Shown: positions 3,301 to 14,908 of the stretch, piece by piece
Layout: each line of letters starts with the position of its first letter
Position numbering within the stretch: position 1 is the stretch's first letter
Virus record (IMG/VR): IMGVR_UViG_3300044846_001324
Coordinates: 1-23,012 of that record
DNA length: 23,012 nt
DNA from: a virus
Reading direction: 5' to 3' (one strand)
The notes under the pieces: model-generated
The model's database searches: none
Seen by the model: the letters and a program-made list of their open reading frames with translations, nothing else
What the model was told of the DNA's origin: nothing
Position numbers and translations under genes: made by a program

Positions 3301-3350
3301 TATATTAGTTATTATAGTGTTTATTTATGTTTTTAGCCATTATATTAGTT
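3296..3350 (-). repeat. 15-bp direct repeat carrying a duplicated start region
   Basis: AACTAATATAATGGC occurs at 3336-3350 and again at 3296-3310. The upstream copy contains the TAA of the sigma-like gene overlapping an ATG that opens an 11-codon mini-ORF (MAKNINKHYNN, 3305-3340). The downstream copy contains the TAA of that mini-ORF overlapping the context of the ATG of the 3106-3300 gene. It looks like a duplication or the scar of a deleted small gene. Confidence 0.55.
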
Positions 3351-3873
3351 CGTAATCTTTATTAATTAAATCCTGATAGTCTTCACCTACATTTTGTCTT
3401 AACCTACGATAGCAATTCTCTAACGTCCTTTGTATGCTTCTCAAAGTTATTCCGCTACCTTTTGAAATATCCCGCATTGAAATTGAATCGTTCATATAAA
3501 TTGAGAATAATAGTTGGTCGTACATATTCCACTTCGTTACTTCTTTGTTAATCTTTACATTAAAATTAGAACGCGCTTTAACCTCATCTAAAGTACAATT
3601 TTCATTTATTTGTATATCATAGTTACTTAGTGAAATAGTTAAGTTGTCCTGTTTAAATTGTTGGAACTGTAAATTTCTTAAAGTAATCCAAACATAAGAC
3701 TTTGATAGCACACCGTTTTTAAATAGCTTTTCGTAAGATGACAATTTGTTTAGTCTTAAATACATATCCTGAACTACGTCTTCGCAAGTATCGTAGCTTA
3801 CACCAAATGACCGTACAATCTTACACCACTCGGAGTGATACTTTGATAGCTCTATCATTAATTTATTACTCAT
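3340..3873 (-). CDS. Phage sigma-70-family (ECF-like) transcription factor
   Basis: A 177-residue protein with two regions typical of small sigma factors. Residues 25-42 contain YDTCEDVVQDMYLRLNKL, matching the region 2 helix with its E-D-x-x-Q-D core. Residues 126-160 contain SISMRDISKGSGITLRSIQRTLENCYRRLR, a region 4 helix-turn-helix. A TTG lies in frame one codon upstream, but I chose the ATG at 3873-3871. It is the first gene behind a consensus promoter (3903-3930) and heads the packaging/tail block, so it could redirect host RNA polymerase to late phage genes. That role is inferred; an ordinary HTH regulator is the alternative. Confidence 0.75.
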   Translation of the reverse strand: MSNKLMIELSKYHSEWCKIVRSFGVSYDTCEDVVQDMYLRLNKLSSYEKLFKNGVLSKSYVWITLRNLQFQQFKQDNLTISLSNYDIQINENCTLDEVKARSNFNVKINKEVTKWNMYDQLLFSIYMNDSISMRDISKGSGITLRSIQRTLENCYRRLRQNVGEDYQDLINKDYELI

Positions 3874-3902
3874 CAATTCAAATAATATGTAAATACCATG
3901 TT

Positions 3903-8636: not shown

Positions 8637-9289
8637 AATAATTTATTTGCGTTTACTTGTTTCATTACGTTATTGTAATACTCATCTTCACTACTTAATT
8701 TTATTTCCGCAGTTTTTACAGAATATTTATCTAGAGTATCAGCTCTTGAAATAAATTCAGGAGTACAAAATTGATAACCATTATCTTTATGATACTGAAT
8801 ATTTTTTAAATTGTCTATACAGTTTTTAATATCCTCTTTGGTATAACCATCTTTTAATCTTGACTTAAATTTTGTTTTAATATTATCATTGATTATTTTA
8901 AACTTTCTGTTTAGAGATGAATTAATATAATTTAGTAACACTCCGAAGTCGATAGACTCGGTACTATTATATTGTTCTTTCTCTTTCTCTTTCCCTTGTA
9001 CTTGTACTTGTACGGCAGGGGGTTCGGTACCCCCTTGCCTAGGGTCTAGGCTACCCCCTTTGCTAGGGTCAAATTTTTCATCTTTTGTTTTGTCAAAATA
9101 TCCTTTTAATTGAGAGTCAATAGAATGTTTTTGAGATAGATACGCAAATTTACTCATGCCTGTTAAATTAGGTTCTATGTTTTCAAATTGTTTATTCATG
9201 ATAGCATCATAAAATAAAAGTCTATCTTTGTCGCTTAATTCTTTTGCTATTTCATAATAGCTGCGGAAAAAATTTATTGCCTTTCTCAT
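8633..9289 (-). CDS. Replication initiation protein (DUF6291-like N-terminus, Phg_2220_C-like C-terminus)
   Basis: A 218-residue protein in two parts. Residues 1-65 (AINFFRSYYEIAKELSDKDRLLFYDAIMN...) look like the DUF6291 domain. A low-complexity linker (about 75-105: GGSLDPRQGGTEPP, three VQ repeats, KEKEKE) separates it from a C-terminal domain (115-195, DFGVLLNYINSSLNRKFKII ... YQFCTPEFISR...LDKY) matching the conserved phage replication domain of TIGR02220. Such proteins act as origin binder or helicase loader. The linker DNA is far more G+C-rich than its surroundings and forms strong hairpins (about 9000-9070). Confidence 0.82.
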   Translation of the reverse strand: MRKAINFFRSYYEIAKELSDKDRLLFYDAIMNKQFENIEPNLTGMSKFAYLSQKHSIDSQLKGYFDKTKDEKFDPSKGGSLDPRQGGTEPPAVQVQVQGKEKEKEQYNSTESIDFGVLLNYINSSLNRKFKIINDNIKTKFKSRLKDGYTKEDIKNCIDNLKNIQYHKDNGYQFCTPEFISRADTLDKYSVKTAEIKLSSEDEYYNNVMKQVNANKLL

Positions 9290-9486: not shown

Positions 9487-9528
9487 AATAAAATAAAGGT
9501 TTTAAGATAACCAGTAACTTTTAGTAAA

Positions 9529-9551
9529 TAAAAAAGCCATTTAAAAAAGGC
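9529..9551 (-). terminator. Weak intrinsic terminator
   Basis: On the minus strand GCC (9551-9549), a T-rich loop and GGC (9538-9536) are followed by TTTTTT ATTTA (9535-9526). The stem is short (3 GC pairs plus 3 AT after a mismatch), but the T-tract is good. It would end the short transcript described at 9530-9609. Confidence 0.45.
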
Positions 9552-9609
9552 GCTGGACTACCTTTGATAAATGACTTTATAATAATGTTTTTAGAAGTGT
9601 CCAGCTTCG
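9530..9609 (-). ncRNA. Putative ~80-nt phage small RNA
   Basis: A TATATTTG -7 element (9621-9614) predicts a start near 9609, and a T-tract terminator ends it near 9530. Between them GCTGGAC (9605-9599) pairs perfectly with GTCCAGC (9558-9552), closing a 40-nt A/T-rich loop; an alternative small hairpin GAAG-CTTC overlaps the 5' arm. No ORF of note is present. This combination of promoter element, closing stem and terminator looks like a discrete RNA. It could instead be a 3' UTR processing product of the lipoprotein mRNA. Confidence 0.4.
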
Positions 9610-9613
9610 TGTA

Positions 9614-9621
9614 CAAATATA
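9614..9621 (-). promoter_or_regulatory. -7 element TATATTTG in lipoprotein 3' flank
   Basis: Matches TAnnTTTG exactly on the minus strand, 8 nt after the lipoprotein stop, but has no TTG at -33. A near copy (ACTATATTTACACG) follows the lysozyme stop around 14943-14955, and the flanking ACTATATTT-ACACG is shared by both. Confidence 0.35.
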
Positions 9622-9866: not shown

Positions 9867-10028
9867 TTTTGGCAGTAAGTTAATAATATTGCCAAAATAG
9901 AATAGGGAGAGCTTAGACAAAATAATTGCGTTTATTTTTACTCCCCCTATTCAGTTGCTTAACCGAACAATACGCATTAAGCAGCTATGTGTGTATGCCA
10001 AAAGTAGGTATAAATTTTAATTTTGGCA
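9867..10028 (-). other. Four consecutive hairpins: structured RNA or replication-origin element
   Basis: This 160-nt gene-free stretch is packed with non-overlapping inverted repeats. IR1 is TTTTGGCA 9867-9874 / TGCCAAAA 9890-9897. IR2 is GAATAGGG 9900-9907 / CCCTATTC 9945-9952. IR3 is AGTTGCTTAA 9953-9962 / TTAAGCAGCT 9977-9986, with one G-T wobble. IR4 is TGCCAAAA 9996-10003 / TTTTGGCA 10021-10028. IR1 and IR4 use the same octamer in mirror order, so the outer arms could also pair with each other. It lies between the cassette array and the lipoprotein, near the replication genes. No T-tract follows any stem, so these are not ordinary terminators. Confidence 0.5.
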
Positions 10029-10083
10029 CGTTATAACACTTGATTAGCGCAACTTCGCAGACGCTAATACGACGTTAGGTGCA
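10029..10083 (-). other. attC-like site A (after cassette gene 10107-10385)
   Basis: On the minus strand the R''-like box ACCTAAC (a perfect RYYYAAC) is followed by GTCGT, ATTAGCG, a loop, CGCTAAT, CAAGT and the R'-like GTTATAA. Pairing is TAAC/GTTA plus ATTAGCG/CGCTAAT, separated by a 5-nt unpaired bubble. TAACGT at the gene-proximal end is shared with the other three sites. The last 10 nt of the gene side (TGCACCTAAC, read on minus) are complementary to the R' side of site B. Confidence 0.7.
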
Positions 10084-10106
10084 ATATTACGAACGCACCC
10101 GTCGAC

Positions 10107-10385
10107 CTATATTTTAGTTGATTTTTTAATTAGTTGTTCAGCTTTATCCATTAATCCAGCAACTTGAATTGTATTATTAGGACTTAAACTACATAATTTC
10201 ACCAATAATTCAAGCATTTCTGGAGCTTTTGAAATTAGTAAGGCTGTTTTTTTAGCTTCTTCAATAGTTTCAAACTGATGATGCCATACTTCAATAAATG
10301 CTCCAAATCCAATATCTTCACCAAGTCTTACATTTTGACATCCAATATGTTCTGGAGTGAATAATTCCCATTTTTCTGTTTTCAT
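10107..10385 (-). CDS. Cassette gene 3: phage-type hypothetical protein
   Basis: A 92-residue soluble protein. The N-terminal part (WELFTPEHIGCQNVRLGEDIGFGAFIEVWHH) is beta-rich. The C-terminal part contains EAKKTALLISKAPEMLELLVKL, which resembles the A-x-LI-x-x-APEMLE-x-L helix common in many small phage and prophage proteins. It is the only ORF of its cassette; the stop is 24 nt before attC-like site A and the ATG sits behind an A/T-rich leader with TTTAATTTAA. Function unknown. Confidence 0.72.
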   Translation of the reverse strand: MKTEKWELFTPEHIGCQNVRLGEDIGFGAFIEVWHHQFETIEEAKKTALLISKAPEMLELLVKLCSLSPNNTIQVAGLMDKAEQLIKKSTKI

Positions 10386-10416
10386 AATTATAATTTTACA
10401 TTGTTAAATTAAATAC

Positions 10417-10499
10417 TGCACCTAACCGCATCTACACTAAACGGATTGAAACGTACTAATCCGAGAGCCGTTAAGCGTAGTTGCAAAACGTTATAAGAG
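10417..10499 (-). other. attC-like site B (after cassette gene 10491-10697)
   Basis: On the minus strand: TCTTATAAC, GTTTT spacer, GCAACTAC paired (7 of 8) with GTAGATGC, an inner AACGG/CCGTT stem with bulges, then GTTAGGT, a perfect GTTRRRY R' box. The gene's TAA lies inside the R'' side. Own arms pair only TAAC/GTTA, whereas the R'' side pairs over 9 nt with the R' side of site C. The longest site, about 80 nt. Confidence 0.68.
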
Positions 10500-10697
10500 A
10501 TTTAAGCGGTGCAAATCATCTTTATCAAAAATAACATCTCTTACTTCTTCGCCACAAGAAGGACAATTATTAACTCTGTACAGTACCGTATCAATCTTAA
10601 AGTGTGGCACTGTTAAAAATATTTTATTATTTTCTGGAAATCGCATCCACTTAAATCCCCTTATTAATTTAGGGAAAACTTTACAACATGTATTCAT
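10491..10697 (-). CDS. Cassette gene 2: small Cys-containing protein
   Basis: A 68-residue basic protein: MNTCCKVFPKLIRGFKWMRFPENNK, then VNNCPSCGEEVRDVIFDKDDL. The single CPSC knuckle plus the N-terminal CC could bind one metal ion, but a full zinc ribbon is not present. It is the sole ORF of a 305-bp cassette; its stop codon falls within the attC-like site that follows. Function unknown. The leader again contains TTTAATTT tracts rather than a Shine-Dalgarno sequence. Confidence 0.65.
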   Translation of the reverse strand: MNTCCKVFPKLIRGFKWMRFPENNKIFLTVPHFKIDTVLYRVNNCPSCGEEVRDVIFDKDDLHRLNLL

Positions 10698-10722
10698 ATC
10701 TATTAAATTAAAATTAAAAACT

Positions 10723-10804
10723 TCTTATAACAGGTGTTTGGCAAAACGGCTTGACAAGTACGATCCTGTTAGCTGTTTCGTCAATCACCGAAACGTTATA
10801 CACA
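10723..10804 (-). other. attC-like site C (after cassette gene 10808-11341)
   Basis: R boxes TATAAC (10726-10731) and GTTATA (10795-10800) pair over 6 nt. Inside, the arms 10733-10750 and 10772-10789 are inverted repeats matching at 14 of 18 positions, with a 21-nt loop. Spacers are asymmetric: 1 nt on one side and GAAAC on the other, as in sites B and D. Minus-strand gene-proximal end reads TAACGTTTC. Confidence 0.7.
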
Positions 10805-10807
10805 ATA

Positions 10808-11341
10808 CTAATCCATATATTTTCTACCAATACCTAAAATTTCTTCTCGTGAAACAGTACTTAATGATGTTAATACTTCAAATAGAAATTTCTTACTATG
10901 AATTGTTCCATTATAACAATTTTCACCTTCGTTGTCAATCCAATTTGCAATCATTAAATGTTTGGTTTTAAAATAGAATTTTCCACTTATTTCACCATCG
11001 TTAGTTATTTTTTCAAATTTACACCATTCTTCATCATAGTGTTTAACTTTAAACCCAAGTTGTTGAAAGTCTAAGTATGTTATTTCTTCATTACCATATT
11101 TATGTTGGTTTAAAAAGTTTGATAGTTCTAATGCTAAATTTGGTATAATATCAAATAAATCTTCATTACTTCTTAACCAATACTCGTATTCACCAACTTC
11201 CATATCAGAAATTGGTTTGAACCCTGGGGAGCGACTAAGCCCTATTAAAACACTCACTTTTTCTTTTTTTTCACGTTCACCCCAAATAACATCTTTTTGT
11301 TCGATTGGTTCTGGTCTTTCATTTTCTAATTTTTCCTTCAT
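10808..11341 (-). CDS. Cassette gene 1: hypothetical protein
   Basis: A 177-residue acidic soluble protein. It has a charged N-terminus (MKEKLENERPEPIEQKDVIWGERE), VSVLIGLSRSPGFKPISDMEVGEYEYWLRS, a central LDFQQLGFKVKHYDEEWCKFEK and a helical end (LFEVLTSLSTVSREEILGIGRKY). I recognise no catalytic motif. As the largest cassette ORF, filling a 648-bp cassette, it is the best candidate for an accessory function such as defence or counter-defence, but nothing in the sequence shows one. Stop TAG is 3 nt before the inverted repeat that ends the cassette. Confidence 0.72.
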   Translation of the reverse strand: MKEKLENERPEPIEQKDVIWGEREKKEKVSVLIGLSRSPGFKPISDMEVGEYEYWLRSNEDLFDIIPNLALELSNFLNQHKYGNEEITYLDFQQLGFKVKHYDEEWCKFEKITNDGEISGKFYFKTKHLMIANWIDNEGENCYNGTIHSKKFLFEVLTSLSTVSREEILGIGRKYMD

Positions 11342-11369
11342 ATTATTTATAATTTAATTTAAAATGTAC

Positions 11370-11430
11370 TGTGTATAACAAATGATAAACAACATTAAAA
11401 CGATTGTTTATCATCAGACGTTATTCAAAA
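11370..11430 (-). other. attC-like site D (after gene 11421-11714)
   Basis: The cleanest of the four hairpins. ATAAC (11375-11379) pairs with GTTAT (11420-11424); spacers are AA and CAGAC; then an 11-bp perfect stem ATGATAAACAA (11382-11392) / TTGTTTATCAT (11404-11414) with an 11-nt loop. The gene's TAA is inside the R'' side. No partner for its R'' end (would be TTTTGAATAAC on plus) was found further upstream, so this may be the resident site into which the three cassettes were inserted. Confidence 0.68.
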
Positions 11431-14791: not shown

Positions 14792-14821
14792 CAAAGATAA
14801 CTATAATATTGACTATTACAA
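14792..14821 (-). promoter_or_regulatory. Consensus Bacteroidota promoter for the early operon
   Basis: On the minus strand TTG (14821-14819), a 19-nt spacer and TATCTTTG (14799-14792) match the TTG / TAnnTTTG consensus exactly. The predicted start is near 14787. It lies between the terminators of the lysis operon and the first early gene, so early genes are independently transcribed by host polymerase. Confidence 0.85.
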
Positions 14822-14854
14822 ACTTTATTATAAAATAATTACTATTTATATTGA

Positions 14855-14893
14855 TTCTAAATAAGAAGGCCGAACAACTTTCGCTATTCGGCC
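14855..14893 (-). terminator. Intrinsic terminator 2 after the lysis genes
   Basis: GGCCGAA (14893-14887 on minus) and TTCGGCC (14874-14868) form a 7-bp GC-rich stem with a 12-nt loop, followed on the minus strand by TTCTTATTTA. It lies between a first terminator and the early promoter and isolates the two transcripts. Confidence 0.65.
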
Positions 14894-14908
14894 CAATTTA
14901 ACCTAACC

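What the first reader, a model, noticed from the sequence alone, without database searches (positions are those of the whole stretch)
9867..10028. Four back-to-back hairpins with mirrored octamer arms
IR1 to IR4 cover 160 nt almost without gaps, and the first and last use the same octamer (TTTTGGCA/TGCCAAAA) in mirror order. The stems have 8, 8, 10 and 8 pairs and no T-tract. This could be a structured phage RNA, a replication origin close to the initiator/helicase genes, or a recombination site related to the adjacent cassette array.
Basis: seen in the sequence. Interest (0 to 1): 0.6.

Follow-up and report, generated by a model that had tools for sequence, protein, structure and literature searches.

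The report
Conserved two-hairpin terminator RNA in phages
The four hairpins are real, but only the middle two matter: they form a conserved RNA structure that most likely ends transcription of one block of genes in a family of Flavobacterium-like phages, just before the next block starts.

Summary
The four inverted repeats exist and are non-random: 0 of 500 dinucleotide shuffles of the stretch fold as well. They are not one unit. IR3+IR2 (9900-9985, - strand) is a conserved single-copy element, found in 15 further distinct IMG/VR or MAG loci. In IR2, every change in the aligned phages keeps the pairing on the strand of the phage genes (23 G-U cells, no A-C cells). IR3 keeps its loop TGCGTATTGTTCGG on a different stem sequence in L020. 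Contrary to the finding, IR2 does have a T-rich tract on the transcribed strand (7-10 T of 12; GTTTTTT in L019 and L064). The element always lies between the last gene of one operon and the downstream module, while genes on both sides vary. Best reading: a phage operon-end RNA, an intrinsic-terminator hairpin (IR2) preceded by a conserved bulged hairpin (IR3) of unknown partner. Simple termination does not explain the invariant loops, so put-like control or a small RNA stay open. Origin and integron-recombination readings are disfavoured. No Rfam family matches.

The parts
9900..9985 (-). Conserved core element, IR3 followed by IR2 (read on the - strand)
   Evidence: Model R1 matches the window and 16 other loci at 82-119 bits; L088 added; one copy per record
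9953..9985 (-). IR3: bulged hairpin with conserved loop TGCGTATTGTTCGG
   Evidence: Invariant loop in most copies; same loop on a different stem in L020/L021; shortened loop with CG/CG inner pairs kept in L054, L066, L088
9900..9952 (-). IR2: 12-13 bp terminator-like hairpin with a conserved internal part
   Evidence: No broken pair in 14 sequences; G-C/G-U/A-U exchanges; -19.4 kcal/mol on the - strand against -14.3 on the + strand
9893..9904 (-). T-rich tail after the GC core of IR2 (TATTCTATTTTG)
   Evidence: 8 of 12 T; 7-10 of 12 in relatives; 1.07% of 12-mers on the - strand have 8 or more (the T=2 printed for L065 is a script artefact, by eye it is 8)
9867..9897 (-). IR1: dyad TTTTGGCA/TGCCAAAA in the upstream part of the next promoter region
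   Evidence: Mismatched in L051, L054, L065; not aligned in L019; deleted in L088
9996..10028 (-). IR4: hairpin between the attC-like site and IR3
   Evidence: Complete only in the window, L056 and L057; right half only in L066 and L088
9827..9834 (-). TATATTTG, matches the flavobacterial -7 box TAnnTTTG; no -33 TTTG at the expected distance
   Evidence: consensus in PMC9723704
10029..10079 (.). attC-like site next to the block, at one end of the cassette array (a separate element)
   Evidence: Read directly; cassette ends complementary (GTTAGGTGCAATATT/AATACTGCACCTAAC); same site in L053, L055, L056, L057, L061, L062

Best explanation
IR3+IR2 is the transcribed 3' end of the phage operon that probably starts near 14.8 kb and runs leftwards on the - strand. 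Shown: the element is conserved, structured on the gene strand, single copy, and always follows the last gene of that operon. Inferred: RNA polymerase makes IR3, then the long IR2 hairpin, and stops or partly stops in the U-rich stretch after IR2's GC core, so that the downstream module is expressed from its own TAnnTTTG promoter(s). Inferred and less sure: IR3, a bulged hairpin with an invariant loop, is bound by a phage or host factor, or protects the RNA 3' end, and so tunes how much transcription passes IR2. Cassettes and accessory genes accumulate just upstream because DNA there joins the operon without disturbing the terminator.
For: Conserved in 16 phage loci, one copy per record. All IR2 changes keep pairing, with 23 G-U cells on the gene strand and none on the other; IR2 is more stable on the gene strand in all 16 copies. 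T-rich tail in all copies, GTTTTTT in L019 and L064. Position: directly after the last gene of the operon; the stop codon lies inside the IR3 5' arm in L019, L052, L059 and L020. Upstream and downstream genes vary while the core stays. In L020 the IR3 hairpin is followed by a canonical terminator CCTCG..CGAGG-TTTTTT. A TAnnTTTG box follows in the window. L019: helicase four-fold sites 60% identical but core about 89% with unchanged loops.
Against: No transcript data. The T-tract is interrupted by A and C in most copies, and the simple terminator scan did not list IR2, because its loop limit is 8 nt. A plain terminator does not need invariant loops. Two-sided compensatory changes are few because the sequences are close. 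IR3 column pair 7/36 is C-A on the gene strand in half of the copies.
Confidence: 0.58

Rival explanations
1. Put-like or nut-like termination control: the two adjacent hairpins act on RNA polymerase, or recruit a phage protein, so that transcription runs through terminators into the next module.
For: Two stem-loops about 1 nt apart within about 85 nt, like the roughly 70-nt two-stem-loop HK022 putRNA (PMC9378689); invariant loops and a conserved bulge; IR3 stands directly before a terminator in two different contexts.
Against: It lies at the end of an operon, several kb from the likely promoter at 14.8 kb, and is followed by its own promoter-like box; put sites lie near early promoters. IR2 itself looks like a terminator.
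Confidence: 0.15
2. A phage small RNA, cut from the 3' end of the operon mRNA or made on its own, that acts in trans through its loops.
For: Loops more conserved than stems; terminator-like 3' end; single copy.
Against: No complementary stretch longer than 10 nt to the loops elsewhere in the window; no obvious promoter in front, and the upstream sequence differs between phages.
Confidence: 0.12
3. A DNA element: a conserved hinge between phage modules, or a recombination platform (attI-like) for the adjacent cassette array.
For: The core stays while genes on both sides change; an attC-like site lies next to it in the window and six relatives; IR3's 3' arm GTTAAGC fits GTTRRRY.
Against: Strand-specific G-U pairing in IR2. 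GTTRRRY is lost in L020 while the loop stays. IR3 is not split by a cassette in any of 16 copies, and the core occurs without any array in L019, L052, L054, L059, L063, L065. Homologous exchange at a conserved sequence can be a by-product of its conservation.
Confidence: 0.1
4. Replication origin.
For: It lies about 0.6 kb upstream of the initiator-like gene in the window.
Against: No GC-skew change. Present next to unrelated replication modules. G-U pattern of a transcribed RNA. A stronger palindromic repeat lies inside the initiator gene at 9017-9064.
Confidence: 0.03

Closest known systems
Intrinsic (Rho-independent) transcription terminators of phages and flavobacteria
   Same: GC-rich hairpin followed by a U-rich tract, placed after the last gene of an operon and before the next promoter
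   Different: Preceded by a second hairpin with an invariant loop; the inside of IR2 is itself conserved; U-tract imperfect in most copies
HK022 putRNA (PMC9378689)
   Same: Two adjacent stem-loops in phage RNA, about 70-85 nt, with a bulge and conserved bases
   Different: Operon end instead of just after an early promoter; no sequence likeness looked for or seen; activity untested
Lambda nut/boxB RNA hairpins
   Same: Small conserved phage hairpin whose loop could be read by a protein (from general knowledge)
   Different: No N-like partner identified; larger loop with a bulged G; position at the operon end
CALINs (attC clusters without integrase) in virulent phages (PMC9892861)
   Same: The neighbouring attC-like cassette array without a nearby integrase; methyltransferase genes occur at the same locus in relatives
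   Different: The hairpin core itself is not an attC or attI and is present without any array in several phages

Membership tests
Intrinsic terminator | Stable GC-rich hairpin in the RNA of the upstream genes | tested here: met
   IR2 -14.6 to -20.8 kcal/mol on the gene strand in 16 copies; pairing kept
Intrinsic terminator | U-rich tract directly after the hairpin | tested here: met
   7-10 T of 12 after the GC core, interrupted in most copies, GTTTTTT in L019 and L064
Intrinsic terminator | Transcription ends there | not testable with these tools
   No transcript data
HK022 put RNA | Two adjacent stem-loops of about 70 nt in total | tested here: met
   IR3 and IR2 about 1 nt apart, about 85 nt
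HK022 put RNA | Located shortly downstream of an early promoter | tested here: not met
   Lies after the last gene of the operon, about 4.8 kb from the promoter-like site at 14.8 kb
HK022 put RNA | Suppresses pausing and termination in cis | not testable with these tools
   Needs a transcription assay
Integron attC/attI (IR1-IR3) | RYYYAAC..GTTRRRY core boxes conserved at the site, used as the insertion point | tested here: not met
   IR3 fits loosely in the window group but the box is lost in L020, and no cassette splits IR3 in 16 copies
Rfam families | Match at the gathering score | tested here: not met
   None; only chance-level eukaryotic snoRNA/miRNA hits far below gathering in the permissive search
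Replication origin | GC-skew switch at the element | tested here: not met
   GC skew keeps its sign through the window

The most novel reading that the evidence does not exclude
IR3-IR2 is a new phage RNA class that controls RNA polymerase or acts in trans through its invariant loops (a put-like element or a phage small RNA in Bacteroidetes phages), using its own terminator hairpin as the switch between an accessory-gene operon and the replication genes.
Probability: 0.25. Interest if true: 0.6.

Novelty: new variant of a known kind. Interest (0 to 1): 0.36.

Why it matters
I found no described transcription punctuation or RNA control elements for this kind of phage in the searches made. A conserved, single-copy, structured operon-end RNA with invariant loops is a concrete and easily tested candidate for such control. 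It also suggests why cassettes and methyltransferase genes collect at one place: they enter just ahead of a terminator, where they join an existing operon.

Tried and rejected
Kissing loop TGCGT (IR3) with ACGCA (IR2): possible in the IR3-IR2 copies (G-U in L065), but L020's IR3 has no ACGCA nearby and a 5-nt match is easily chance, so not claimed. Mirrored octamers as a functional pair: rejected, because IR1 and IR4 are not conserved. Host origin: a pattern scan of the genome collection gave only one real hit, a viral-looking 5-kb contig in a Bacteroidetes MAG (L066), and one chance hit (L067). A search of 64 genomes of that MAG's family found the element only in the MAG itself. Named phages and plasmids: no real match. 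Other exact hits to the IR3 loop (L069, L070, L072-L078) lack the IR3 stem; stem-pattern hits L081-L087 and L089 lie in unrelated sequence without IR2. Antisense or repeat matches of the core elsewhere in the window: at most 11 nt on the same strand and 10 nt antisense. tRNA or tmRNA: none. Origin: rejected on skew and gene context. The first IR2 folding script cut the hairpin short and was redone.

Full report
WHAT WAS CHECKED. The window is one linear IMG/VR virus record of 23,012 bases in which the main phage genes run on the - strand. The four inverted repeats at 9867-10028 are there. The stretch folds better than all 500 dinucleotide shuffles on either strand, and only one other scanned stretch (8911-9072, inside the initiator gene) folds more stably. 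The octamer TTTTGGCA occurs four times in the window, all in this block.

ONE BLOCK, TWO KINDS OF PARTS. Relatives were fetched with the initiator and helicase proteins and with loop sequences. On the - strand the order is attC-like site, IR4, IR3, IR2, IR1, TATATTTG, downstream genes. Besides the window, 15 distinct loci carry IR3+IR2 in full (L005, L019, L051-L057, L059, L063-L066, L088), and there are a cut copy (L058) and a near-duplicate of L055 (L061). It is a single copy in each record searched whole. IR4 forms only in the window, L056 and L057; L066 and L088 keep its right half only. IR1 is degraded in L051, L054 and L065, not aligned in L019 and deleted in L088. So the mirrored octamers that drew attention are the peripheral part.

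IR3+IR2 IS STRUCTURED ON THE GENE STRAND. In the 14-sequence alignment all IR2 pairs are kept. Six of them vary, through G-C/G-U, U-A/U-G and two-sided G-C to A-U changes. Counted by strand, IR2 has 23 G-U cells on the - strand and none that would be G-U on the + strand. IR2 is more stable on the - strand in all 16 copies. L088 adds a G-to-A change in the 5' arm that stays paired. Sliding the partner by 1-3 columns drops paired cells from 98.6% to 40-58%. The copies are close relatives, so the formal covariation signal is small (two two-sided pairs; covariation score reached by 1 of 500 shuffles), and IR3 has one pair (columns 7/36) that is C-A on the - strand in half of the copies. The stronger point for IR3 is L020/L021: there the loop TGCGTATTGTTCGG sits on a different stem, TTCTAA/TTAGAA, directly after another methyltransferase gene and before a canonical terminator. 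In L054, L066 and L088 the loop is shortened but the inner CG/CG pairs stay.

CONSERVATION EXCEEDS THE BACKGROUND. L019's helicase shares only 60% of four-fold sites with the window, and its sequence beyond IR2 is unrelated, yet the IR3+IR2 core is about 89% identical with both loops unchanged. Recent exchange of this stretch between phages could add to that similarity and cannot be separated from selection here.

CONTEXT. Clustering of neighbouring ORFs shows the same upstream operon (families F8, F6, F5, F1, F4, F3, F2, F11) ending at the core. The last gene before the core varies: cassettes in the window, a Dcm-like methyltransferase in L019/L052/L059, F11 or F2 in others. The downstream genes vary too, including different replication modules. 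In L019, L052, L059 and L020 the stop codon TAA lies inside the 5' arm of IR3. A TAnnTTTG box follows (9834; a second one at 9621). This is the -7 consensus reported for flavobacteria (PMC9723704), although the -33 element is missing here. A promoter-like TTTG-N-TATCTTTG at about 14.8 kb and a terminator-like hairpin at 14894-14867 mark the likely start of the upstream operon.

MECHANISM. The tail after IR2's GC core is T-rich (8 of 12 in the window, an unbroken TTTTTT in L019 and L064; about 1% of 12-mers on that strand reach 8). The most economical reading is an operon-end RNA with an intrinsic terminator (IR2) and a conserved bulged hairpin (IR3) directly in front of it. Shown: conservation, gene-strand structure, position, tail composition. 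Inferred: termination itself. Guessed: that IR3's loop is read by a factor. A plain terminator would not preserve its loops, so put-like control or a small RNA remain open.

NOT SUPPORTED. Origin: no skew switch, and the core is shared by phages with different replication modules. Recombination site: the attC-like array next door resembles the CALINs already reported in virulent phages, including Polaribacter phage P12002L (PMC9892861). The core is never split by a cassette and occurs without an array. Rfam has no matching family; named phages and plasmids have no real match.

LIMITS. All copies come from one group of uncultured phages; the host is inferred only from weak matches to Flavobacterium phages, the promoter type and one Bacteroidetes MAG. 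There are no expression data. The attC-like sites were not scored with an integron-specific model, and several of their R boxes (GTTATA..) do not fit GTTRRRY strictly.

Noticed in passing
window 9490-9621, - strand; also L005 3590-3710 and 4951-5063, L019 2215-2335, L064: Leader-like RNA after a TATATTTG box: a stem (GCTGGAC/GTCCAGC in the window; GCTTGGAC/GTCCAAGC, GTCTCAC/GTGAGAC, GTCAGC/GCTGAC, GCCTGGA/TCCAGGC in relatives) interleaved with a terminator-like stem (AGTCATTTA/TAAATGGCTTTTTT). The stem sequence differs each time but pairs each time, so it looks like a recurrent phage attenuator or pseudoknot leader with no Rfam match.
   Followed up: partly
window 8990-9070: GC-rich palindromic tandem repeat (GGGGGTTCGGTACCCCC...) inside the initiator gene, the most stable 162-nt stretch of the scan; a candidate replication origin.
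   Followed up: no
window 10029-11420: Array of attC-like sites with three small cassette-like ORFs (10107-10385, 10491-10697, 10808-11341), no Pfam hits. The site next to the hairpin block is nearly constant across six relatives while its cassette side varies, as a fixed insertion platform would.
   Followed up: partly
window 3340-3876, - strand: 178-aa ORF that looks by eye like a sigma-70-type factor; no Pfam hit at E 0.01. It could be a phage sigma factor.
   Followed up: partly
window 14867-14894 and 14792-14822, - strand: Strong terminator-like hairpin (GGCCGAATAGCGAAAGTTGTTCGGCC) followed by a TTTG-N-TATCTTTG promoter-like site: the likely boundary before the operon that ends at the hairpin block. 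Its loop side shares TTGTTCGG with IR3.
   Followed up: no
L019, L020, L052, L059: The stop codon of a DNA methyltransferase gene (two different kinds) lies inside the 5' arm of the IR3 hairpin.
   Followed up: partly
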